Of a stretch of DNA of 64,000 bases, positions 2,909 to 50,075 are shown in pieces. The notes beneath the pieces are model-generated. The model was not told the DNA's origin. It saw nothing but the letters and a program-made list of their open reading frames with translations, and searched no databases. Source of the stretch: Galerina marginata (lineage: Eukaryota > Basidiomycota > Agaricomycetes > Agaricales > Galerinaceae); the NCBI GenBank assembly GCA_023014335.1, contig JAECYW010000015.1, forward strand, positions 1,612,001 to 1,676,000, in the 5' to 3' direction. The translations under genes and the position numbers were made by a program. Within the stretch, counting starts at the first letter, position 1. Each line of letters starts with the position of its first letter.

Positions 2909-3025
2909 GATATCTTGCGATATTCAGGACTAGGTTTTGGAGAATACCTCTTACTTGGTCCTAGTCGTGTTGGCCAAGTTGCGGATGTGGGTTCGGGGAC
3001 GGACCATGGGCCGCTCTATCTGTAG
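2909..3025 (+). pseudogene. Decayed third copy of the small membrane protein gene (3' end only)
   Basis: The sequence around 2920-2965 matches the region encoding the FWK segment of copies 1 and 2 (shared words ttttgga, ataccnnnnnnttggtcc). About 84 bases present in copy 1 are then missing. The final bases encode a tail like VADVGSGTDHGPLYL followed by a stop, which is nearly the tail of copy 1. No upstream exons are seen. It is a truncated, internally deleted tandem copy. Confidence 0.6.
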
Positions 3026-4208
3026 TATATGATTCCGAGCTACGGAAACTATCGAGTAGACAGCCTGTGTATGCGATGAAACAATGTGATTATGCCCCGA
3101 ACTACTAATTCTCGAGTAGAAAGAAGAAAATCCCGAAAGCACCAAGATTGAAAATGGAGAGCTAACTGACGGATGGATAAATATTAACAGGACACGACCA
3201 CCGCCAACAACTGCGGAAGCCCGTAGAACGTGCGTAGGACACCCTTGAGCTAAATAATTTCTAAGAGGGTCAAATAATCTGCCTAGAATCAAGCATTGCC
3301 TGACTTGACTGGTTGACAGAAAAGTATTAGGGAAATGTGACAAGGAAGAAGAGGAGTTGGGAGATTTGGAAAAGACGAGCATTTATAAGCGAATAGATAC
3401 TGGATTGATCGTAGAAGACCATGCAAGCTAACTGAGTGACGGTAGCTGAGAACCGGATGCGAATGGAACAAGAAGAAATATATTCGCTCGGAAGCGAGAT
3501 ACTAGGAAACAGAATACCAAGGGATCAACACGTTATATTACAAGGAGGACCTTCGATAGAATACGTGAGATGAAGAGGATGAGAGCAGAAAGGATTCTTA
3601 AACTTACCTTATTGCGCTTTAGCCAGTACTATCTCAGGTGACAGGTGACAGGTTCGCCTATTCTGAATCATCGGATTTACCTGCAGCTGCGGAATAGGTA
3701 TTCGCCCAAGATGTTTTGGGTCTGAGGAGATCCCCAAGGAAAACAAGTAAGTCGGTACCCTTCGATCACGGCGTAAGAAGAGACGGAAGTAAGAAGTCAG
3801 AAAGGAAGGACACCTTCAAAACGAGAATAAAAGTGGCACTTACCTCTCAGATTATCCGAAGCACCGTAATACCTCTAAGCGCACGTCGATGTAAAGTTGT
3901 TGGCTTCGAGCTTGGCAATAGGACACGTCGCGGTTGGTTTGAAGGTGGTGTCACAGACATGTGGGCGTCAGATAGGATGTTTCTGGGTATAAACAAGTGG
4001 CATCGACGCACAATGTGCCAGAAGCAGTCAAAACAGCCACCCCACCATACGCTCCATAGGGCTAGGCTACCGGTGTGCATTGCAAAATACTCGATTCAGA
4101 CCCCAAAGCACCGAAAACTGGACTCGGAAGCCAGGTTCGAAGGGATGGAAAGAGATGAAAATAATCCTGTCGAAACATATCATAAATCCTTGCCAATGAT
4201 CCCTTGAA
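3026..4208. other. Region without a supported gene
   Basis: An open frame of 163 codons runs from 3716 to 4207 on the plus strand and is rich in Lys and Arg. It has no recognisable domain and stops just before the target duplication of the element at 4217. I do not call it as a gene. Around 4,093-4,140 and 5,390-5,430, on either side of the element, short similar words occur (gattcagacc, caccgaa, actcg, cgaaggg), hinting at old flanking repeats. Confidence 0.3.
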
Positions 4209-5324: not shown

Positions 5325-8300
5325 CCCGAAAGGCGTGTCGATCTGGTGACGCCTAAATGACGAATAGTAGCTGGAGATGACGAAAGATATTGATTCAGAC
5401 CAGGCAGCACACCGAAGGCCCGACTCGAAGGGTTGATCATTGGCTGTAGAAGGGGTGATGGTCTTCGTAATATCCGTTATCTAGTCAAAAGGTTGAGATA
5501 ATAATGACGATTTTGACTCCTGCTAGGTTCAGAAACCGCGAGGACGCCTCACTTGAAGAGTTAGACAGTTTTATGAGAACCATATGGTGCTCGTGAGGCA
5601 AGATCAAAAATTGCCAGAGGGCGAGAAAGAAAATGGCATCAAAAGCGCACATTTATATCTGTAGAGCGCAAAGGAAGAGATGCACGAAGACAAATTCAAG
5701 ACAGAGACACCAACCACAAGTTTTTCGACTGAAGAGTACAGAATGAATCGAGCAAGTAGAAGTAACAGGAGAATGGGCTCCTTGTTCACCCTATTCTTAT
5801 CGGTACGAGACTGGTGATGGTGCTGATTGACGACGCGGCGATGATGGTGACAGCTATTTCTGCAGCAAGCGTCGGGACTGAGTACTGAGGCCCGAGGACG
5901 CCAATACTCGTTGGTGTCGGCGTACAGCAATAATATCTTTGCAATAGGCCGAATTAACGCAAGAAATCTGCAAATCTTTATGCCAGTAACTCCTGTCAGA
6001 GGGAGGTCATCAAGTCAAGACGATTTGAAGACGATAACCGCCAGGAGATTCAGATGGGGCTCTTATGAGAGTCTATGCATATTTTCTTCTGTGGCATTCA
6101 CCTCGCCCTATCTCGAGAGGCAGTCGGTCATCACCTTCAAGTTCCTGTCGTTGTTGAGGAGCGGCAAAGGAGCGGGTGGATATTGACGAACCACGGTATC
6201 AAGCGAGGTCAGTTTGTTCTTGTTTAAACCTAGGGACTTTGGCTTCGTTGATACCAAAACACGATTCGGCCCTCTTGTCGCAGAGTCACATCATGCTGCA
6301 CCAACTCATGTATGATCTCTTCGGCCGAGCTCTCTTGTCCTCCTCCGGTCATCGTTAACATTCCACAGCATGTAGACCTGGTTACCTAGCTGGCTCACCG
6401 TGGCCAAATTAACAGGATAACCCACGATTGTCTGTAACAATCGTGGTGCGAAGGGCAAGAAGTACTTGAACTTGCTCCTGGAGGAAGAAGACGCACTCAA
6501 TCATAACCATGTACGTGTCTTTCTTCTCCCTCTTTTCTTCCTGACACCCCACCCCATACAGAACGAACCAGGCTCCACTCGCACCTGCGCACTTTTCCAC
6601 CAGCGTCGGGAGTGGCTTTGCCTCAGTTTTTTTCCGTCTCAAACGACGGCATTGCCACCTGCACCCGCTCCTCCGTGCTTGTGTGGGGATTCTCGCCCAT
6701 CACCTGAGTTGAACCTCCCCGCGGAGTAGCTACTAGAAGTGGTATAGCAGGCAGACAAAGCCGTCGACGAGTCATGACTGTCGTCGCATACGGTACCGTG
6801 CGATCTCGCCTCTATGCCCGCCCCGCTCACATTGACACCAATTCCAACAGCATCAACGCGTCCACCAGTTAGTGTATCTGGTTCGTGGTTTCCTTCAAGT
6901 GTTTGTGACTACGTGGCCGTATCGCGTCATCTATGATCGTTGATCCCTGCGCACCTCGCCTATTGCGACATCGCTTCCGTCGTCGAAGAATGGCCCAATT
7001 CCGCGACAGTCGATATCCTATTTCCTTTCATCTTCACTTTTCCGCGTCTTTCTTGAACCCCTTCGCCTTCAGCTTTTTCTGAAAACCGCAACCACGAGCA
7101 CGAGCTGCTCCTTGTACAGCCCCCGTCTCACCTCAGCAGGCACTCTCGCGCTTTCACGACTGCCCGCGCCCGCCTCGCCGCTCCATCGTTCACACCCCCT
7201 CCTCGTCCTCAGTGAGGCCCCGTTCAGGAGACAACAATGGTGTTATGCAGCATCAACAGTATCAGCACCACCACCTCGTACTCGACGTACCGTACGCCGA
7301 TTGAGTGGTCCCTTTCTGGACCATGGGTGCTGGGCTCGGGCTCGGGCTCGGGATAGAGAGGAGGCGGGGTTGGAAGAGGCCAGGGGGCAGGGAAGGGGAA
7401 AGGGAAAGGGAAACGCGCGGAGGCGGGGGAACCCCAACAACGACGATGCGTCAACGATCTGCTGCTGGCCTAGAGAAGGCCGTTCTGTTCTCTTTGAAGG
7501 TTCTAAGACACAAACAATGAAAGAACGACCAAGCGCTTTTTGGGTTTGAAGGACATTTCCGCGAATCCACCAGCACTCGTTTAATCGGATCCTCTCCCCG
7601 TCTTATCTTCTCTTGTTTGCCCTTACTTGAGTCACGACTTCTCATCCTTCAATGTTCGATGTTCGCCGTCAGGCGTCTACCTTATCCTGCTGCGATGATC
7701 GCATCGTACAGACCTTGGCTTCTATCTATAAGCAGGAAGGCGTGGGGTGCTGGTGGTAGCTTAAAGTGGTGGTGGGACGTGGCGTAGAGGATGGAGACGC
7801 TGAGAAAGCTTCTCGCTTTAAGAGCATGGCTTCCTGTCGGGCGCTCATCCTCTATTCCTTCAACCTTTTGGGCTGGATTATACAAGGTAATTCCGATCAG
7901 TCGCGAGTCGGTACACGTTGGCACCACCCCAGCTCATCTCCCGCGATCTCCACTCGCGCCGTTGCCCGAGGCCCTTATAGGCTTGTCGTTGCATTTACTG
8001 TGTATTTTAGTAGTTTGGCTCACGTTAAAATAGGTACTTCACTGAATACTGCCAGGTCGGCTGCGGGCTATAAGGGCGTCTAATAACCCCCTGTCAACGA
8101 GGACCCTGGTCCGCCAAATGCACCATAGTACACGGACTGTAGGCCGATCATTGGAGGGTGGGTGCCTACATACATACATGTGCGCAAAAATCAAACATGA
8201 TTGACAGGTCCCCAATACGGTCTTCGCTGGTTTTACGCCAGCCTCGATAAGTCATCGCTGGCTGTGCTTATTGATTCCATCACGATTTGAGGTTTCTCTC

Positions 8301-8350
8301 TCCCCCCTTAACCACTTCTTCCTTAACCATCTATTGCTTTCTTCATCGTA
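5325..8350. other. Mostly unassigned region with CT-rich and G-rich tracts
   Basis: No gene is recognised with confidence. 6950-7230 is pyrimidine-rich. 7320-7430 is a purine-rich stretch with repeated ggctcggg and gggaaag words. A weak two-exon candidate on the minus strand (6306-6642) is listed separately. The last ~100 bases before 8351 are pyrimidine-rich and precede the next gene. Confidence 0.35.
6306..6642 (-). CDS. Possible two-exon gene fragment, unknown function
   Basis: On the minus strand, a frame reading LPTLVEKCAGASGAWFVL meets a GTATGG donor near 6561. It resumes after a CAG near 6476 as KFKYFLPFAPRLLQTIVGYP. The phase is kept and the ~80 nt intron is plausible. No domain is recognised, and neither a start codon exon nor a convincing stop is established. 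It could be a gene fragment or chance. Confidence 0.2.
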
Positions 8351-11300
8351 ATGGCACATCGGAAGTGGTTTAGTCGTGATTCAGACCATGGACGGACGTA
8401 TTCCATTGCCGCAGGCCTCTCTACCGCACCGACCGTAGTGCCTGCCTCGACGCCTCGGGACCCTAAGGTTAAAAAAACAATCACATCTTCCTAATCATTC
8501 GTTGACTAAACCCTTCAGCCCATTTCCGTCGTGCAGAGAACAAACAACCGCGCGCGTCAGGCTCTTAACGTTCTTTCCCCAATTACTGCAGCAATTCCAC
8601 TGGCCGGAACTCAATTGAAGGCGGTCATCGACACTGTACTTGTCGGATTGAATGGAATTAACGTGAGTTAGCGCATTGTTAAGAATATTATTCATGTGTG
8701 ATGAACCGTTGGGAAGATAAGGGGCAGGAATAAAGAAGATGTGGCCCGCCTGACACAACGCCTTGACCGTTTGAAGGCCAGCATCTCAGTATTGCCGCCA
8801 ACCACACCTTCCGCCGACTATCAAAGGGATGAATTAGTTCGGTAGGTGTCGCCATCGGAATGTCCGCATAAGCGCTTAATTTTGGCCGTATCTTCAGGAA
8901 GCTCGACACAGTTCAGGGCCAGCTGAAGGAACTAGATGTCAAGAGCGTACTCGGTAGTGCAGACAACGCGCAGGCTATCATTGATCGCATGCGTGAAATT
9001 GACGAACACCAGCAGGATTACATTGTGAGTCGACTCGTTTGAGATGTAGTTCACGTTCAACCACCCAATTGCATTCTCAGTTGCTGTCCCTACTGCAAAT
9101 GGTACCTGTCACGCAAGAAGTCGCGGCACCACAGCTGCCTATGTCTGTGAAACAGGAACTCGTCTTCGTAAGGGATCCGACAGGTCAGGAATATTCATTG
9201 TTGGCTAACCAATGCCAATCACATAACGTCAGTTGCGTTCACCCAAACCCGATTTTTTATGGAACCTGAGTTGACTCATTCACCAGCAATTTATGAATGT
9301 ACTGCTAAGTTACCCTAGAGATGCTGAAAGGGATGAAGTCTTGCGTAATTTGTTTGCACGAGGCGCATACGATTTTTTCGTCGAAACCGAAACAGGCACT
9401 ACGAAATTGGACAGATGGTGTAGAATTCCAGCAGGCATGAAGATTACCATGAGCGCGATCATTGAACAGCGACGCTCCAGAACAATTTACTTTTGTCCAC
9501 GTCCACAGTGCAAGGCTTTGAATGACGGCAACGATGCGTACGACGGTTGGATCAACTGGTATGCATTGGCTTATATTCTCTTGTTAGTTGACGTACAACA
9601 GGTGCCAGTAAGGGCTGTCCTGGGCGGTTTCAGATTACAAACGCCGAGAGAAGGACCAACGACACGACGTCAAAATCTGGTCAAAACACCCATGGGCCTA
9701 CAGATGTGGCAGCTGTTGACTACCTTCTGAACCTCATCCAGATTTTCCACTTAAGGCAAGAGGTATACAATTTCCATCTTTCAAGTCACCTTCCCGGGCT
9801 TATGCGTGCGGGACTGCATGTAACATTCAGTTTGTGCGTAAATTCGTCTTGTAAGGTGTTCATATCAAGTTGACTATTGCTTTTGGCCATTTTTACTCCT
9901 AGGATGTGGGTGAATCATCCGTCTGAGCTTTTTAGGTCAACCTGACAGTCGATGGTCACTTCCACACTTAGCCCGTGCGTGAATCCACCTTCTAATTTTG
10001 TGCCGAAGCTGACCATTGCGGATGGTGACGTCGACTCTCAGGAAGTCCGTGAATCCATTTCTCAGCTCATTATACAAAGCTGACTGCGGGCGGTCACTTT
10101 GCTGTATAGCTTGTGCGTGGAGCTATCATATAAGCTTTTTATGTCAAGCTGACAGTTGTCGGTGGTCATTTCTACTTTCAGAGTGTGTGTAACTCCATTA
10201 TCTGAGCTCTTTACGCCGAGCTGATATTGAGGGTGCTTACTTCAACTTGCAGGAAGTGCGTAAATCCGCGATCTGAGCCCTTCATGTCAACCTGACAATT
10301 GCCGGTGGTCATTTCTACTCTCAGCTGGTGCGAGAATTCATCATCTAAGCCTTTCACGCCCAGCTGATAATTGAGGGTGCTTACTTCAATATCAGGAGGT
10401 GCGTAAATCCACGATCCGAGCCCATCATTTCAATCTAACAATTGCCGGTGGTCACTGCTACTCCCAGATGGTGCGTGAATTCGTCATCTAAGCCTTTCAC
10501 GCCTAGCTGACAATTTGAGGGTGCTTACTTCAACCTGCAGGGGGTGCGTAAATCAACGATCTGAACTCTTTGTGTCAACCTGACAATTGTCCGTGGTCAT
10601 TTCCACTCCCAGAGAGTGCGTAAATCCACCGACTGAGGCGTTTCTGCCAAGCTGACAAATGTCCGTGGTCATTTACACTCACAGGCTGTGCGTGATTCAA
10701 TTATATAAACTTTTTATTTCATCCTGACAATTGTCGGCGGTCACTTCGACTCTCAGTTTGTGCGTGAAACGACTGTCTGATATCTTATGACAACCTGAAA
10801 TTGTCGGTCGTCAATCACACCCTCAGAAAGTGCGTGATTCCATTGTCTGCGGTTTTATGCCAAACCGACTATATTGTTGGTGGTTACTTCAACTCGCAGG
10901 AAGTGCGTGTTTCCGCCATCTGAGTTCTGTATGTCAACCTCCTGACAATTTTTGTTGGTCATATCCACTCACAGGCTGTGCGTGATTCAATTATATAAAC
11001 TTTTATTTCATCCTGACAATTGTCGGCGGTCACTTCGACCCCCAGTTCGTGAGTGAAATGACTGTCTAGTATCTTTATGACGACCTGATATTTTCGGTCG
11101 TCAATTCCACTCTCAGGAAGTGCGTGATTCCATTATCTGCGCTTTTATGCCAAACAACCATTTTTGGTGGTTACTTCGACTTGCAGGTAGTGCGTGAATC
11201 CGCCATCTGAGTTCTGTATGTAAACCTCCTGACAATTTTCGTTGGATTTCCACTCTCAGCTGAGAGTGCGTGAATCCACTGACTGAGGCATTGTGCCAAG

Positions 11301-12219
11301 CTGACAATTTTCGGTGGTCATTTACACTCACAGGCTGTGCGTGAATCTATCATATAAACTTTCTATTTCCCCCTGACAATTGTCGGTAGTCACTTCAACT
11401 TTCAATTGGTGCGTGAATCCAATGTTTGATCTCTTTATGACAAACTGAAAATGTATGTCGTCAATCCCACTCTCAGAAAGTGCGTGATTCTATTGTCTGC
11501 GCTTTTATGCCGAACCGACCATTGTTGGTGCTCACTCCAACTTGCAGGAGGTATGAGAATCCTCTATCTGAGCTCCTGATGTCAACCTAACAATTGTCTG
11601 TGGTCATTTTCACTTTCAGAACGTGTGTGAATTCATTATCCAAACCATTCACGCCTAGCTGACAATTGGTACTTCAACACACAGGGGGTATGTGAATTCG
11701 CTTTCTGGACTTTTTCTGTCAACCTGACAATTGTCGGCGGTCATTTCCACTCTCAGATAGTGCGTGAATTCACCATCTGGATTTCTTCTACCAAGCTGAC
11801 AATTGGGTTGTTATTTCCACTCCAGCCAGTGCGTGAGGCCACCGGTCACTTCGACTCTAGCGGGTGAGTAGGTCCACCGTCTGAGCTCTTAATCTCATTC
11901 TGACCATTACTGGCGGTTATTTCCACTCTCAGAGGCTTGAAATTCGTAAATCCATCGCCGTCTAATATTTTTTTTGTCAAATTAACCATCTTTGGTGGAT
12001 ATTTGCCCGTTTAGTTGGTCCGTGAATTCATTGTCTAAGCCCTTTTACCAAGCTGACCCTTTCAACGTTGGCGGTCATTTCTACTATCAGGAATTATGTA
12101 AATCCGTCGCTGACCAAACTCATTATGTCAACCTATCCATCATGCTGATTTCCATATCCCTGAAACCTCCGCTCTAATACTCCTGTGCCTACTTATCTAG
12201 AAAGACCTGGACTAGATGA
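8351..12219 (+). CDS. Helical N-terminus + fungal ubiquitin-like domain + Cys4 zinc site protein, with a micro-exon array at the 3' end
   Basis: Exons by eye: 8351-8467, 8519-8662, about 8717-8841, 8898-9024, 9081-9227, 9287-9558, 9609-9762, then the array (own entry), ending at TGA 12217-12219. The N-terminal ~170 residues are helical (LKAVIDTVLVGLNGIN, VARLTQRLDRLKASI), like the N-terminal helical domains of agaric NLR and ubiquitin-like proteins. The segment from VFVRDPTGQEYSL to GMKITMSAIIEQ looks like the fungal ubiquitin-like fold found in such proteins. A zinc site follows: CPRPQC, then INCKGCPGRFQI across the 9558/9609 junction. The acceptor before 8717 is the least certain junction. 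If the array is spliced codon by codon, the protein ends about 45 residues after LRQE. If the array is removed as one intron, it stops after KDLD. A role in signalling or innate-type recognition is inference from family company. Confidence 0.7.
9763..12200 (+). repeat. Array of 34 intron-like units separated by one-codon spacers
   Basis: There are thirty-four units of about 62-73 nt (one of 32 nt and a final one of 103 nt). Nearly every unit starts GTGCGTGA/GTGCGTAA (a few GTATG, GTCCG, GTGAG), has a CTGAC-like box near its middle and ends in TCAG, GCAG, ACAG or TAG. Of the 33 spacers between consecutive units, 30 are exactly 3 nt. The others are 6 nt (11260-11265), 13 nt (11933-11945) and 7 nt (12091-12097); the 13, a 3 and the 7 together with the next exon restore the frame. 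The upstream exon ends in phase 0 at 9762. Read as codons, the spacers begin FDPELSELEMGR and continue with an Ala/Phe/Glu/Leu-rich helix-like sequence with no stop. Two units are defective: 11337-11405 ends in AA, and 11829-11860 is only 32 nt. Confidence 0.85.
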
Positions 12220-13800
12220 TGTCTCACCCGGATTTCTTCCCTTTAGATATTCATCCGGTAAACTTGAATCAAGTGGAACATCAGATCGAAGGGACGCGAA
12301 GATATTTGCAGTTCTTTAGTTTTACAAGACGTGTTCTGAGCTTCTTAATTTGTTGGTCGTTCGTAATGGATACAAAATTAGCTGCTAAATTGCGGTTGGT
12401 GATGATCTACGAAAAGGAAACATCCTTCAGGCCCGACGACACCTCCATTGTCTCCAGCTACCTCCTTAGCGCAAAGTAAAAGAAGTCACAAATCATGCAC
12501 CTTGTCTGCGGTCACGCACGGTGTGCTCAAGTGCAGCCCGTACCGGCACCACCACGAGTCGCGACCTTCGTCCCTGCTAACCCTGAACACACCTCCATCT
12601 GCACAGCGCGAACACAATGTCAAGCGAAAACTCCCAATGCCCATTCCTCAAGGCGGAACACCCTTTAATATTAATTATAAATTGTCTTTCATCATTCTTC
12701 AACTGCTAACTACTGGTAGACCTTAATGGCCAACATGGTGGCCTGGAAGTTGGCGGGCAGTTCCGGGAAACGACGGAAATGCCATTGCCCGAATTCTTGA
12801 TAGGTGGGCTGCGTTGTGAAACACGCTTGGAATGCGGTAATCCCGTGCTTAAAGTGCCGAGGTCGCGAGGAAGAGCGGATCAGAGATCTCGAACCGGGAA
12901 AAGTAGCATCTTCAGCGAGCTACAGCATAACAAACCGTGATCAGTTTCGCTTCAGAAGAAGAATGAAACCAGGAGATACCTACCTAGCCCATTACTCCTC
13001 CACTGACTCATATTCTCATCCCAATGACGATTCCAGTTTGGCGTGTTCGTAGGTGGTGTGACGATGGAAAAATCGCAGGCAGGAAAAGGTCGATTGCAAC
13101 TATACGAAACATATTTTTTTAAAGAAGATCAGAAAAGAGGTTAAGTACGAAAAGTTTATTCACTCACGCCAACGTGAAACTCGCCCAAAGACGCCCAGGA
13201 GATCTGAAAAACGAGGAGCAGAATGCGAAATTCGCAGCGTCGCAAGAGTGATGAGTCGTTGGGATCGTCAAGGTGTTGAAGATTCTCAGGGGAGAAATTT
13301 TAATCTAGCATCTTAGGGAGAATCGAAAAAGAGATGGAGCTGGAGGAAACAGATACTGATCGACTGAAGATGGGACAGGGTAGACGAGAAGGACAACCTA
13401 AGTATTTGAAATTTTGGTCTCAACAACAGGCAGCACGTGACCGATGCGATGACGCGACGCGTCTCTATTTCCAAATGCAACACTTTGCTCTTCTATGTGA
13501 CTTAATATAATTGCTATCCATTAAATAAAATTCTTCGATAGCAAATTTAAGAGGTTTTCTTGATTCACATACTAGTAATCGAACAAGTCGGCTGGACGAA
13601 AACTAGTGCATTTTCAGTGGCAGACGAGTGAGGATCCGTGAAATTCAGATGGCCGGAATGTCGATGTTGTGTCTTGAGGTGAACGTGACGCAGGAACGTG
13701 CGGAAGCAGACTCGACGACTCGCCACCGAATTCCAGATGAGGAAACCCAAAGCTTGAAGAACGGCTACGAAGGATTGAGCCAGGGTATCCTTCTTTTGCG
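12220..13800. other. No supported gene
   Basis: Scattered short open frames only. I see no recognisable domain, repeat or element ends. Confidence 0.4.
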
Positions 13801-25052: not shown

Positions 25053-28000
25053 CTACCACCAATTAGGTACACCACCACCTGGGGCTGCGGCGCGTACGGA
25101 GTCTGCCACCCCATTCATTTCAAGGAAGCTTTTGAACTCAGGACCCGTCATTCGTCCTCCGCACATCCTTTGTAAGTATACTGAGGTCTTAGTGATGCCC
25201 CACTGATTCCTGCAGGATTCCGGCCGGAATATCGAAATTCCGCGGATTCCTGCAGGAATCGGAATGGCAGAGGGACCAGCCAAAAGCCCCAATTCCGTGG
25301 GTTATATTCCGGCGGAATGCGGCGCGGAACGTCCGGAATGGGGAATTCGGTGGGATTCCGCGGCGGAATATGAGGTTACATCATACGATTACGTAATGTT
25401 CCCACCTGTCGTGGCTTGTTGATTTCCCCACGTCGTGCCAGTCTCTTGCCTGTCGACCACCACCACCGTCCCTCTCCCCCCTCTCCTCCCCCCTTATCGT
25501 CCAGTCCCGCCGGCTGCGACATTTCGCCGCCACCGTCGGCATGCGCGCTCACGACCCGCTGGCGCCACGTCGACCCCACCACATCACAATACCCGCCACG
25601 TCGAACGTCGCCGACCCCGCCACCACGACTCTGAACCCCCTCGCTTACCCCGTCGCGACTGCCACGTCACGGGCCTCAGAGGGCGAACAGCGCGTTGGCC
25701 ACGTCGCAGCGCCTTACGGAGTGGGGAAAAGGGACCAGAGGTACCGGTAAGCACCCCCGATCCCATCCATCCCTATTCCACCCTCGTTAATGCCCCAGCA
25801 TCCACCTCTGGCTCGTCCGCTGGCGTTTCGAACCAACGGCAGCCGCGGAAACGGCCAACGTCGACCCCAACCCGACCCCTCCGCCCTCATTTCGAATCAA
25901 CAGCGACCACGTCACCCCCACTGCCGCCGGATTCGACTCGCATCGCCCCCGAAACCATTTTGAACCCACGGCAGTCTCGTTAGCCCCCACCACCCGTGCG
26001 CTGGGACTCCCGCGGCGCCCATCGCTCACCCGTTCGCATTCGTTTTGCGAACGGGACCCGAAGCCCATCAGCCCGCCACCGCGTTTTCGAGCCCAACCCC
26101 ACCATTCACGCCCGAGGCGCCACCTGCCACCGCCACGTCGACGCCAGCCACCACGACGTTGCCTCCACGTTGAACGAACGCCGGCCCCGCCTCTACGACC
26201 CCCACAGCTCGCTGACGTGGCGCGAATGCCACGTCACGGAGCTCGAGAGACAAACCGCGCCGGGACTGGGTCATAGGAACGCCATTGAGGCCCAGCGACA
26301 CCTGGTAAGCACCCCACCCATCAACCTAGGCCTCCGCTGACGCCCCCAGACAGCAATCAAACGATGACGACCGCTCCCGCGAACGCCCCAGCCGCGTTCG
26401 CCGCTGTTTCGAGCCAGCGGCAGCCACACCAACCCCCCGCCGCTGCCTTTCCGCTTGAAACGGCCACGACGACCATCGCCACCTTTTCAGGCCCAACCCC
26501 ACCATTGCGGCTCCGAGCCCGCAGCCCGCAATATGTCGACCCCTACCATCACCCGCGTCGGCCACGCAGTGTCAAACGAACGACCACCGCGACCCCACAG
26601 CTCGCTGCCGGGTTGCGAGTACCACCTAACGGACGTCGAGAAACGGAACGCGGGGTTTAGGGAGTGGGGGATAGGCCCACAGACACCCGGTAAGCACCCC
26701 AACCTATTTACCTCCCATCGAACTCACCCCTTCTCGTTTAACCCACCCGCGGGCCTCGAGTTGGGCCCACCCTCCGCCATTTTGCACTCACGCCCTTCCT
26801 CCCTCCAACTCCCCGCGCCGACTCGTTTCGCGAACGGCCGCCGAACTCGCGCGGCGGCTGGCGTTCGGCCACCGTTGTGTACAACACCCACCCCGCCTCC
26901 GTTTATTGTAAATATAATTAAAGTAATTAGAATAGCGTAACACTGGCAGTAATGTAATATATGATGTTTAGTATCAATAATAGACTATATGTGAATTGTA
27001 TTGAAACCTGACAGTGAAGCTAGCAAATAGTAAGAAAAACACCAGTTAGATGGCCTGTATTACACACTATAGGTACTATTCCCTCTATTCCTTGAGGAAT
27101 CCTCAGGGAATAGAGGGAATCCACAGGAATAGAAGGAATAGAAGGAATTCCCCAAGGAATAAAGGGAATTCCCTCCATTCCACTGGGAATCCTACAGGAA
27201 TAGAGGGATTCCCGCCATTCCTAGGGAATCAGTGGGGGAATGAAAAGTACTGAGTATACTCCAACTTCATGCGCCACGATTGTCTTTCCATGCCGAAGAA
27301 CATCTGGTATCATCGAAAAATTGCATCTTTGAGCCAAATCGATCAGCGTTTCTGACCTTCTCGATTCCTTGAGAAGTTTGGCGAGACAATCCAGACCATA
27401 TGCCCACATCTTTACGTTCTCGTTATCCCAGGGCCACTTGAGTTCCAGGTGACGAATTATGCGCTTCAGTAAGTGAATTGCACTGTTAGTGTACACCGTG
27501 GTCGTCGGCACGTAACTTCCAAGTCGTGTTTTGTGTGAAAACATTGCGTGCAAGAAATCATAGTACTCGTAGGCCTTTGGGATGTTGTCCGTCAGCGCGG
27601 GAATTAGTCTGAGGGCGGCTATGTCGATGTGCGTTGATTTTTCGTCAAGCTCGAATAGTGTGTTGAAGCTGGCAGTAGTCAATTCAATGGGCCTCCTGTC
27701 AGAGATGGAAATAACGGCAATAAGGGCAGCTCAGCCTTTCACTGAGTAGTAGCTACCCAGCTGCTGCCCTACATATTCATCAACTGCCTGGCTGTGATGA
27801 CGATGGAAATTTTCAGCATCAATAAATTGCTTGGACAGGTATGTCAGTTTGAGAAGGCATTAAAATTATGCGAGATACTCATACCGATTGCTTAATGGAT
27901 TCTAAAAATTGCCCCACCGTCCCGAGGACATCTAAAACCTCTGATCCTGGAGGTAAACGAAAAAATCCTGTGATATCAAGGCCTAGAATTCCACGTCGAA

Positions 28001-47247: not shown

Positions 47248-50075
47248 TTATTCAGTGTCTAGGAGAGCGAATGTTGTTGCTATCCCTTCCTCCGATATCG
47301 CTTCAAGTAACGCAAAAAGCTGCTCCAGTGCCGGACGAGCGGCGGAGGGAGGTCTTAGTGATGCCCCACTGATTCCTGCAGGATTCCGGCCGGAATATCG
47401 AAATTCCGCGGATTCCTGCAGGAATCGGAATGGCAGAGGGACCAGCCAAAAGCCCCAATTCCGTGGGTTATATTCCGGCGGAATGCGGCGCGGAACGTCC
47501 GGAATGGGGAATTCGGTGGGATTCCGCGGCGGAATATGAGGTTACATCATACGATTACGTAATGTTCCCACCTGTCGTGGCTTGTTGATTTCCCCACGTC
47601 GTGCCAGTCTCTTGCCTGTCGACCACCACCACCGTCCCTCTCCCCCCTCTCCTCCCCCCTTATCGTCCAGTCCCGCCGGCTGCGACATTTCGCCGCCACC
47701 GTCGGCATGCGCGCTCACGACCCGCTGGCGCCACGTCGACCCCACCACATCACAATACCCGCCACGTCGAACGTCGCCGACCCCGCCACCACGACTCTGA
47801 ACCCCCTCGCTTACCCCGTCGCGACTGCCACGTCACGGGCCTCAGAGGGCGAACAGCGCGTTGGCCACGTCGCAGCGCCTTACGGAGTGGGGAAAAGGGA
47901 CCAGAGGTACCGGTAAGCACCCCCGATCCCATCCATCCCTATTCCACCCTCGTTAATGCCCCAGCATCCACCTCTGGCTCGTCCGCTGGCGTTTCGAACC
48001 AACGGCAGCCGCGGAAACGGCCAACGTCGACCCCAACCCGACCCCTCCGCCCTCATTTCGAATCAACAGCGACCACGTCACCCCCACTGCCGCCGGATTC
48101 GACTCGCATCGCCCCCGAAACCATTTTGAACCCACGGCAGTCTCGTTAGCCCCCACCACCCGTGCGCTGGGACTCCCGCGGCGCCCATCGCTCACCCGTT
48201 CGCATTCGTTTTGCGAACGGGACCCGAAGCCCATCAGCCCGCCACCGCGTTTTCGAGCCCAACCCCACCATTCACGCCCGAGGCGCCACCTGCCACCGCC
48301 ACGTCGACGCCAGCCACCACGACGTTGCCTCCACGTTGAACGAACGCCGGCCCCGCCTCTACGACCCCCACAGCTCGCTGACGTGGCGCGAATGCCACGT
48401 CACGGAGCTCGAGAGACAAACCGCGCCGGGACTGGGTCATAGGAACGCCATTGAGGCCCAGCGACACCTGGTAAGCACCCCACCCATCAACCTAGGCCTC
48501 CGCTGACGCCCCCAGACAGCAATCAAACGATGACGACCGCTCCCGCGAACGCCCCAGCCGCGTTCGCCGCTGTTTCGAGCCAGCGGCAGCCACACCAACC
48601 CCCCGCCGCTGCCTTTCCGCTTGAAACGGCCACGACGACCATCGCCACCTTTTCAGGCCCAACCCCACCATTGCGGCTCCGAGCCCGCAGCCCGCAATAT
48701 GTCGACCCCTACCATCACCCGCGTCGGCCACGCAGTGTCAAACGAACGACCACCGCGACCCCACAGCTCGCTGCCGGGTTGCGAGTACCACCTAACGGAC
48801 GTCGAGAAACGGAACGCGGGGTTTAGGGAGTGGGGGATAGGCCCACAGACACCCGGTAAGCACCCCAACCTATTTACCTCCCATCGAACTCACCCCTTCT
48901 CGTTTAACCCACCCGCGGGCCTCGAGTTGGGCCCACCCTCCGCCATTTTGCACTCACGCCCTTCCTCCCTCCAACTCCCCGCGCCGACTCGTTTCGCGAA
49001 CGGCCGCCGAACTCGCGCGGCGGCTGGCGTTCGGCCACCGTTGTGTACAACACCCACCCCGCCTCCGTTTATTGTAAATATAATTAAAGTAATTAGAATA
49101 GCGTAACACTGGCAGTAATGTAATATATGATGTTTAGTATCAATAATAGACTATATGTGAATTGTATTGAAACCTGACAGTGAAGCTAGCAAATAGTAAG
49201 AAAAACACCAGTTAGATGGCCTGTATTACACACTATAGGTACTATTCCCTCTATTCCTTGAGGAATCCTCAGGGAATAGAGGGAATCCACAGGAATAGAA
49301 GGAATAGAAGGAATTCCCCAAGGAATAAAGGGAATTCCCTCCATTCCACTGGGAATCCTACAGGAATAGAGGGATTCCCGCCATTCCTAGGGAATCAGTG
49401 GGGGAATGAAAAGTACTGGGCGGAGGCAGCAACCATATCCTCCAAAGTAACTTCCACAGGATAAAAGTCAGTGGCTGGTTCGGCAGCTCGATCCAATGAG
49501 TAAACTCGACACCCAATCATGACGGTGAAAGAATTGTCGCTTGTTTGAACAGGTGGTGGCGGAAAATTGGGTTGGTCAGAATTCATCATGAAAGGGGTGA
49601 GGGGATCGAGGACCACCTTTCCCCAAAGGGGCATTCGGGGGTGGACCTCAACCATTGAAAGGGTGAAACACGGGAACATTAGCGTAGCTCGGATGCGAGC
49701 TCTCTGGAGCATGACGGCGCAATGTCCTTGGAGGATCTGAGGTGTTTGGGCGCCCCATATGGTCAGGATGAGCATAGTTAAGGCATTCTTGTGGTGTTCC
49801 ACCCAAGCTTCTCCCGCAGCTCGGTTAGGTGGAACAGGTGCTGTTCCGCAGTAATGACGGTGTAATGGCCACGCAAGTTGTTGGCAATCTGCATTCTACA
49901 ACATGTTTGTCAGACTGTCAGACTTCCCATAGAACTGTAATGGACATACGCAGTAGTAGGCATTGTCGCAGCCTGTGCACCTAAAACGAGTTTCGGGCAA
50001 TGGGGGCTTGAAGCAGTGACGGCAGAAATGTGATATTGTTGGTCGACTGTTGGAGATGAATATGCGTGAAGGCAT
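47248..50075 (-). pseudogene. MYND zinc-finger gene broken by a mobile element
   Basis: The start is ATG at 50075 (MPSRIFISNSRPT). Exons: 50075-49950, then 49895 down to 49419, where the element begins. The frame resumes at 47340 and stops at 47248 (FALLDTE). The N-terminus is a MYND finger: CRHC, CTGC, YYCNADC (across the intron) and HRHYC, with QLAW between. MYND fingers are protein-protein interaction modules. The rest (LTMLILTIWGAQTPQILQGH, RVYSLDRAAEPATDF) is not recognised. Removing the element and one GGCGGAGG copy gives VAASA joined in frame to ARPALEQLFALLEAISEEG, so the gene was intact before insertion. As it stands, the protein would end a few residues into the element. Confidence 0.75.
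47341..49426. mobile_element. 2,070 bp GC-rich non-autonomous DNA element, copy 2
   Basis: The body is 47349-49418, flanked by the perfect 8 bp duplication GGCGGAGG (47341-47348 and 49419-49426). I see no difference from copy 1 at 25183-27252 over the whole length, including the repeat-rich ends. Same orientation as copy 1. It interrupts the MYND gene. Confidence 0.9.

What the first reader, a model, noticed from the sequence alone, without database searches (positions are those of the whole stretch)
9763..12200. A gene tail apparently split into single codons by ~34 tandem introns
Seen directly: 34 consecutive units, most 65-73 nt, each with a GTGCGT-like donor, a CTGAC-like box and a CAG/TAG end. 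Thirty of 33 spacers are exactly 3 nt. The upstream exon ends on a codon boundary. The spacer codons contain no stop and read as a helix-like sequence (FDPELSELEMGR..., ALKENGIPR), and the tail leads in frame to a stop at 12217. A plain minisatellite would not need 3 nt spacers in phase, nor donor, branch-like and acceptor signals kept in almost every unit while the rest diverges. If spliced, every amino acid over ~30 residues comes from its own micro-exon. I know of no described gene of this kind.
Basis: partly seen in the sequence, partly recalled or inferred. Interest (0 to 1): 0.95.

Follow-up and report, generated by a model that had tools for sequence, protein, structure and literature searches.

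The report
Arrays of one-codon exons
In this mushroom-type fungus, stretches of several proteins appear to be written one amino acid at a time, each codon being its own tiny exon between two short introns, an arrangement that would push gene splicing to its limit.

Summary
The window gene ends in 34 tandem intron-like units; 30 of 33 spacers are 3 nt, and the spliced tail can be read in frame to TGA at 12217-12219. The same genome holds at least ten more arrays: in two paralogs, in three neighbouring membrane-protein genes and in other genes. Segmenting 11 arrays with equal weight for spacers of 1-15 nt gave 3 nt in 280 of 286. The 300 spacer codons contain no stop; 9.6 are expected. Introns within an array are alike (mean column identity 0.61-0.89), codon positions 1-2 are not (0.18-0.53), and codons often differ beside introns 98% identical. 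In six hand-modelled arrays coding exons join in frame on both sides. A Psilocybe homolog's annotated tail is a read-through of the same 69+3-nt unit at the same place. A plain minisatellite fits badly; serial splicing of single-codon exons fits best. No RNA was available: splicing is inferred; how the arrays arise and what the tails do are open.

The parts
8351..8467 (+). exon 1 of the host gene (start ATG)
   Evidence: homolog alignments
8519..8662 (+). exon 2
8717..8841 (+). exon 3
8898..9024 (+). exon 4
9081..9227 (+). exon 5 (corrected so that FVRDPTGQEY..QCQSH, conserved in homologs, is kept)
9287..9558 (+). exon 6, most of the ULD_2-like region and the first half of a CPxxxC..CxxC zinc-ribbon-like motif (motif by eye)
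9609..9762 (+). exon 7, ends ..LIQIFHLRQE on a codon boundary
9763..12200 (+). array of 34 intron-like units (GTGCGT..CTGAC..CAG) with 33 tiny exons between them
9763..9830 (+). array intron 1 (GTATAC donor), unlike the other units; perhaps the old intron of the gene family (inference)
9831..9833 (+). first single-codon exon TTT; then GAT 9903, CCC 9972, GAA 10042, CTT 10110, AGT 10182, GAA 10253, CTG 10325, GAG 10396, ATG 10468, GGG 10541, AGA 10613, GCT 10685, TTT 10757, AAA 10827, GAA 10900 (start positions)
10975..10977 (+). single-codon exon GCT; then TTC 11046, GAA 11117, GTA 11187, CTGAGA 11260 (two codons), GCT 11334, TTG 11406, AAA 11477, GAG 11548, AAC 11620, GGG 11685, ATA 11757, CCA 11826, CGG 11861 (start positions)
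11403..11405 (+). CAA in place of the acceptor CAG of intron 23; its TTG exon would probably be skipped, in frame
   Evidence: skipping is inference
11829..11860 (+). unit 30, internal deletion, 32 nt, without branch-like box; probably not an intron by itself
11933..11945 (+). 13-nt exon AGGCTTGAAATTC (RLEI..), irregular end of the array
12015..12017 (+). exon TTG
12091..12097 (+). 7-nt exon GAATTAT
12201..12219 (+). final exon and stop TGA (12217-12219); with the three exons above it the frame reads RLEILGIIKTWTR*

Best explanation
The window gene encodes a fungal ubiquitin-like/zinc-ribbon-type protein whose C-terminal segment of about 31 residues is carried by consecutive exons of one codon each, separated by short spliceosomal introns of about 69 nt that the spliceosome removes one by one (intron definition), after which short last exons close the frame. 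The introns of an array descend from one local intron that was multiplied and kept alike, while the codons between them differ and are held, or driven, by selection on the protein. Because nearly every spacer is 3 nt, gaining, losing or skipping a unit adds or removes one amino acid without a frameshift, so the tail can vary in steps of one residue. Shown by sequence: architecture, spacer length, absence of stops, signals kept in nearly every unit, in-frame flanks, recurrence in other genes and in a Psilocybe homolog. Inferred: that each intron is spliced, that the tail is made, how units multiply, and any role of the tail in recognition.
For:: 30 of 33 spacers 3 nt; splice-critical columns invariant or nearly so, spacer columns random; at least ten more arrays in the genome; 280 of 286 spacers 3 nt with equal weight for 1-15 nt, introns 47-84 nt; the GTGAGT pattern with 3-nt spacers gives 235 hits (36 in its backward control), with 4-5 nt 40 (95 in its control), so arrays with 4-5-nt spacers do not show up for this donor; 0 stops in 300 codons, 9.65 expected, 0 of 20000 shuffles free of stops; 0 in 281 after removing repeated blocks (8.8 expected), and 0 in 142 for the six modelled genes (6.1 expected, P 0.00015). 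GTN spacers 7 against 22.2 expected, [ACT]AG 2 against 7.3, GAG (a poor acceptor, recalled) 8 against 4.2; phase-0 coding exons on both sides of the six modelled arrays. P0003 of Psilocybe fits two successive units in register (26.5 bits; next best register -43; best of 5000 shuffles -18.9). C5a and C5b, matched from the 3' end, share identical codons at 4 of 10 positions.
Against: No RNA or protein data. The window alone does not prove coding (1.1 stops expected). One window unit lacks AG, one is too short, the end is irregular. No protein with a tail like the predicted one was found (8 candidates, none at E <= 10), and the homolog P0001, which I infer to be cDNA-derived, ends FEFFFCIDKSSIEESVLC, which fits neither the predicted tail nor the units. 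Arrays were found with patterns that ask for 3 nt; only one other spacing was tested, with one donor. Other readings of the spacers also give few stops in two of five cases (reverse complement 2, frame +1 6; reverse 25, complement 16, frame +2 35). Of 16 triplets never seen, 13 are not stops, among them TGT (4.6 expected) and TCA (3.3). C19, C20b and C40 add nothing to the stop test (0.00 expected each). C40 units read through without stops. C5a and C5c share 1 of 10 codons matched from the 3' end.
Confidence: 0.8

Rival explanations
1. The array is removed wholly or mostly as one long intron (first donor to last acceptor), or with random skipping; the inner splice signals are relics of intron duplication and the spacers are not normally translated.
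For: The flanking exons would also join in frame if the whole array were skipped in the five arrays other than the window's. Some window units have broken signals. P0001, perhaps a cDNA, has a short tail unlike the predicted one.
Against: Untranslated spacers should carry stops: 0 of 300 against 9.65 expected. Spacer length should drift as intron length does: 280 of 286 stay at 3 nt.
Confidence: 0.12
2. A neutral minisatellite of about 72 bp that happened to grow inside an intron.
For: Tandem, with higher-order blocks of two and four units; block duplication does take part.
Against: In a neutral repeat the spacer would diverge like the rest; instead positions 1-2 are at 0.18-0.53 identity while intron columns average 0.61-0.89, and codons often differ beside introns 98% identical. 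Donor, branch-like and acceptor positions are among the most conserved. Six coding regions can be rejoined in frame.
Confidence: 0.05
3. On the origin (not exclusive with the best explanation): introner-like elements (mobile introns) inserted one after another between the codons of an existing exon.
For: Near-identical introns beside unlike codons look like copies placed between old codons.
Against: A search with the C5 unit found 55 matches, all in the three C5 arrays (only best candidates are scored). Only 5 of 55 pairs of array consensus introns pass z > 4, and these lie within gene families. Fixed third-base T in C19 and C40 suggests that part of the codon travels with the intron.
Confidence: 0.2

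Closest known systems
Micro-exon genes of schistosomes (MEGs; recalled) and bicycle genes of aphids (passages of PMC9168663)
   Same: Many consecutive tiny exons in fast-evolving genes; in bicycle genes about 17 exons on average and more than 100 microexons in the 'megacycle' gene.
   Different: There the micro-exons are longer than one codon (recalled) and, in bicycle genes, almost all of phase 2; here each predicted exon is one phase-0 codon and the introns of an array resemble each other.
Single ultra-short exons: 1-nt exons of plant APC11 and VPS55 (passages of PMC8831610); the 3-bp exon of Drosophila homothorax (search listing of PMC7392893); the Xlr2 microexon of Trichoderma (abstract and passages of PMC11121469)
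   Same: They show that exons of 1-3 nt can be spliced, and that a filamentous fungus uses a microexon.
   Different: Single exons of this size, not tens in a row between repeated introns.
Introner-like elements in fungi (passages of PMC4457414)
   Same: Near-identical introns multiplied within one genome.
   Different: [quoted passage not shown] these introns form head-to-tail arrays with 3-nt spacing.
[quoted passage not shown]
   Same: Tandem duplication that carries splice sites along.
   Different: The cases seen there give one new intron, not a series of codon-sized exons.
SNORD115/116 host gene with tens of tandem introns (search listing of PMC11608373)
   Same: Tens of introns in series.
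   Different: They carry snoRNA-like RNAs; no Rfam family reaches its threshold at window 8000-13500.

Membership tests
Neutral minisatellite | All positions of the unit diverge alike, spacer included | tested here: not met
   Spacer columns 0.25-0.31 against mean 0.68 for intron columns; positions 1-2 lower than the intron mean in all 11 arrays, position 3 in 9 of 11 (fixed T in C19 and C40)
U2-type spliceosomal introns | GT donor, branch-like yTnAy box, AG acceptor kept in every unit | tested here: met
   GT 28 of 28, branch-like A 28 of 28, AG 27 of 28 among i2-i29; exceptions i23, i30 and the irregular end
U2-type spliceosomal introns | Removed from RNA in the cell | not testable with these tools
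   No RNA data
Introner-like elements | Near-identical copies as single introns in unrelated genes | tested here: not met
   55 matches of the C5 unit, all in C5 arrays; a 485-bp piece of the window array matches only that array. Sensitivity limited: best candidates only; the other intron types were not searched
Stwintrons | One intron interrupts a splice signal of another (definition from the abstract) | tested here: not met
   Units lie head to tail with a codon between them
Micro-exon genes | Run of symmetrical micro-exons, length divisible by three, in frame (definition recalled) | tested here: met
   284 of 286 spacers divisible by three, as predicted exons only; no RNA
Micro-exon genes | Homologous to known MEG or bicycle families | not tested
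   No such sequence was compared; the host shows only ULD_2-like similarity
ULD_2 (PF22893) proteins | Pfam gathering score 24.5 reached | tested here: inconclusive
   Window protein 23.2 bits, E 7.9e-5; all 7 aligned members match at E <= 1

The most novel reading that the evidence does not exclude
The arrays are a codon-cassette system: one intron multiplied locally turns a protein segment into a string of exchangeable single-residue cassettes. Near-identical introns allow unequal exchange or conversion to add, drop or swap residues without frameshift, and skipping could give many isoforms of one gene, so that fast-evolving, perhaps recognition-type proteins diversify residue by residue. Such arrays have arisen several times in this genome, and at least one other mushroom genus (Psilocybe) has one.
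Probability: 0.3. Interest if true: 0.98.

Novelty: categorically new. Interest (0 to 1): 0.95.

Why it matters
If true, protein segments of 10 to 42 residues are assembled by tens of splicing events that each deliver one amino acid. It would test how small exons can be in series, give a clear setting for studying intron multiplication (alike introns beside unlike codons), suggest a route to protein diversification by one-residue steps, and explain why annotation goes astray in such genes: ordinary gene finders and read mappers have trouble with exons this small, so similar arrays may be overlooked in other fungi.

Tried and rejected
Homolog tails as direct proof: those of P0001, P0002, P0003 and P0004 do not resemble the predicted window tail beyond chance (P0003 20% of shuffles as good, P0001 59%, P0002 97%, P0004 16%; P0012 not tested there). 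P0003, and more weakly P0002, instead fit read-through of array units; P0012, P0001 and P0004 do not. P0002 is weak in the profile test (166 of 5000 shuffles as good, though in register). A search with the predicted tail found no protein. Scans of viral and prokaryote contigs found no relatives. No solved structure matches beyond chance (best E 0.076). A resemblance of the N-terminal part to HeLo/MLKL-type bundles is recalled only. I first read the hosts of C18, C23, C20b and C40 as G-domain GTPases from recalled motifs; Pfam did not confirm it for the pieces given, so I leave them unnamed; the membrane-protein family has no Pfam match either, and 'membrane' is by eye. Coding in C18, C23, C20b, C40 and C19 rests on spacers and upstream ORFs, not on full gene models. 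Segmentation settings were loosened. Nine literature searches listed no description of arrays of one-codon exons; only listings and the papers named above were looked at, in an open-access library without preprints.
Full report
WHAT IS IN THE WINDOW. The host gene starts at 8351 and has seven ordinary exons (hand-built, checked on homologs). Its product matches fungal proteins, most of them named ubiquitin-like: Rhodocollybia butyracea and Psilocybe cyanescens homologs at 41-47% identity (which listed 12 proteins at E <= 0.001; one search listed 11 at E <= 1). Exon 7 ends ..LIQIFHLRQE in phase 0 at 9762. From 9763 to 12200 there are 34 intron-like units; 31 are 65-73 nt, and 30 of the 33 pieces between them are 3 nt. 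Joined in order they read FDPELSELEMGRAFKEAFEVLRALKENGIPR, then RLEILGIIKTWTR and a stop at 12217-12219. One acceptor is CAA, one unit is 32 nt, and near the end there are spacers of 13, 3 and 7 nt that, with the last exon, can be read in frame.

MORE THAN CHANCE? In an alignment of units 2-29 the positions that splicing needs are invariant or nearly so, intron columns average 0.68 pairwise identity, and the three spacer positions are at the level of random letters. A plain tandem repeat would carry its spacer along.

THE SAME THING ELSEWHERE IN THE GENOME. The genome has 69.3 Mb in 43 contigs. A splice-signal pattern led to an array on contig C5; paralogs of the window gene on C1 and C20 also carry arrays, each with its own intron sequence. 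A pattern with GTGCGT donors (61 hits; 12 in its backward control) showed three C5 arrays in neighbouring genes of a multi-pass membrane-protein-like family. GTGAGT (235 hits; 36 in the control) and GTAAGT (51; 34) showed more clusters, on C18 (two), C20, C23, C19 and C40; GTATGT (24; 12) suggests short ones on C1 and C23. The GTGAGT list was cut off at C23, so the tally is a lower bound. I read eleven arrays: C7 (window), C1, C20a, C5a, C5b, C5c, C19, C18, C20b, C40 and C23. The second C18 array and the GTATGT places were seen only in pattern lists. A third paralog, on C13, has by eye only two units and a later remnant.

SPACER LENGTH. A dynamic program that scores donors, acceptors and branch boxes and gives every spacer length from 1 to 15 the same weight found 3 nt in 280 of 286 spacers and a multiple of three in 284 of 286; the others are 1, 6, 9 (three times) and 10 nt; introns range from 47 to 84 nt. 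In the window it covers only the first 23 introns. The 1-nt case lies in a GTGTGTGT run that allows AGT as well. An earlier, stricter setting gave the same for C1 (10 of 10) and C20a (16 of 16) and 19 of 22 for the window. As the arrays were found with patterns that ask for three letters, I searched for the GTGAGT pattern with 4-5 letters: 40 hits against 95 for its control, while the 3-letter pattern had 235 against 36. Other spacings and donors were not tested this way.

TRANSLATION. Using the hand list for the window (30 spacers before the irregular end) and all other spacers divisible by three (one 10-nt spacer of C23 dropped), the 300 codons contain no stop; shuffling letters within columns of each array gives 9.6 on average and never zero in 20000 trials. 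With repeated three-codon blocks removed, 281 codons, 8.8 expected, again none; leaving out any one array keeps P at or below 0.0002 (5000 trials each); for the six arrays with both flanks modelled, 142 codons, 6.1 expected, P 0.00015. C19, C20b and C40 add nothing to this test. Control readings of the same letters give 25, 16, 2, 6 and 35 stops (reverse, complement, reverse complement, frame +1, frame +2), so two of the five controls are also low. Sixteen triplets are never seen, 13 of them not stops; the largest expectations among the 16 are TAA 4.7, TGT 4.6, TCA 3.3 and TGA 3.3. Cysteine codons are absent (5.2 expected).

SPLICING CONSTRAINT. In the same 281 codons, spacers starting with GT are depleted (7 against 22.2 expected), as are AAG, CAG and TAG together (2 against 7.3; 0.9% of shuffles as low), while GAG is not (8 against 4.2): codons that would form rival donors or good acceptors are avoided. 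Part of the GTN depletion could come from how the program places donors.

FRAME. In C1 (..LIRNVHLKQH + PYWFSSWLRE + STRLELLANENIALDKDI*), C20a (..LIRNIHLERY + FRRFRRGFIRAVAPEP + LRTKAGVQSSLKRQSRLTSDSEEEEEKADL*), C5a, C5b, C5c and the window, hand-modelled phase-0 coding exons precede and follow the array. In C5a and C5c the flanking exons are similar (DD..G.M.SDSRVDRATG before, ANRE..LLP after) while the array peptides differ: arginine/proline-rich in C5a (VFLDTIPRVPWERRPPPPLRRWQPIPLLGPWVLRELEEWRER) and acidic in C5c (GIRFDPIDAIIDIDHLKEQLEESEEEIDWDKLNEEK). Whole-array skipping would mostly keep the frame too, so this does not by itself prove inclusion. The C19 array follows an open reading frame that resembles ankyrin repeats by eye.

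INTRONS ALIKE, CODONS UNLIKE. Mean intron column identity is 0.61-0.89 per array; codon positions 1 and 2 are at 0.18-0.53; position 3 is at 0.26-0.54 in nine arrays and fixed as T in C19 and C40. Preceding codons of intron pairs at least 97% identical differ at 70%, 56% and 44% of positions 1-3 in C18 (27 pairs), 39%, 53% and 27% in C23 (51 pairs) and 50%, 83% and 50% in C20b (6 pairs), with introns differing at about 2% (bands with fewer than 5 pairs were not printed). C5a and C5b, matched from their 3' ends, share 4 identical codons of 10 with introns 81-96% identical; C5a and C5c share 1 of 10. So codons are partly inherited and not drawn anew each time. Array consensus introns pass z > 4 in 5 of 55 pairs (C7-C20a, the three C5 pairs, C18-C23), leaving about seven intron types. 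That points to repeated local origins, or to divergence beyond recognition.

OTHER FUNGI. The annotated tail of P0003 (Psilocybe cyanescens) after ..IFHIKKQ is T + 23 residues + E + VRESHI; 23 codons are 69 nt. Scored (with a stop at its end) against the window's unit profile over all 72 registers it gives 26.5 bits in exactly the expected register, -43 in the next, and at best -18.9 in 5000 shuffles; by translated alignment 0 of 500 shuffles and 0 of 20 other window stretches reach its score. Judged from the residues, donor and acceptor of that unit have decayed, so it is read as exon there. P0002 (Rhodocollybia) ends D + 22 residues, which with a stop are again 69 nt; it beats 500 of 500 shuffles by alignment but only 97% in the profile test. 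P0001, P0004 and P0012 show no such fit. No DNA of these homologs was available. The feature therefore appears older than this genome.

HOW IT MOST LIKELY WORKS. Short introns are recognised as units (intron definition, established for fungi; recalled). Removing each one leaves one more codon joined to the growing exon; a missed unit costs one residue and keeps the frame. Multiplication of the intron with a 3-nt piece is tolerated because it adds one residue at a time. Why intron sequences stay alike while codons do not is unresolved: intron-confined conversion with selection on residues, or strong diversifying selection. Absence of stops, maintained length and variable residues fit a coding tail that changes fast; a recognition function is speculation.

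NOVELTY. Single 1- and 3-nt exons, micro-exon-rich genes, mobile introns and tandem-duplication introns are known. Nine searches of the held library listed no report of tens of consecutive one-codon exons between near-identical introns; preprints and most subscription journals were not covered.

Noticed in passing
window 25183-27252 and 47349-49418: Exact direct repeats of 2070 bp (100% identical) about 20 kb apart, as of a very young LTR-type element or segmental duplication.
   Followed up: no
L028 (C13:1056500-1065500), reverse complement about 2960-3500: A paralog of the window gene with, by eye, only two array units; a unit remnant (CAGCTCGTGCGTAATATCATTCTCTGAGCC) lies after some 370 nt with an open reading frame that looks like a zinc finger by eye.
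   Followed up: partly
L050 (C40:3398700-3402000), 1019-2767: Array units of mostly 66+3 nt can be read straight through without stops (ORFs of 310 and 271 codons) as a hydrophobic 23-residue repeat, so intron retention would be translatable there.
   Followed up: no
G000 C1:3995.16k and C23:2568.2k: Pattern hits of GTATGT type that look like further short arrays; the GTGAGT list was cut off, so more may exist on later contigs.
   Followed up: no
L048 and L051, array starts: Two paralogous arrays begin with the same small exons GAT, TAT, GGAAAC/T.. (D, Y, GN) although the introns next to them are 66-80% identical; possible codon conservation between paralogs.
   Followed up: partly
P0001 (JGI, 1454-nt contig): A homolog whose introns are absent, perhaps from a transcript (inference), with tail FEFFFCIDKSSIEESVLC; the DNA of this contig would show whether single-codon exons were joined.
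   Followed up: no
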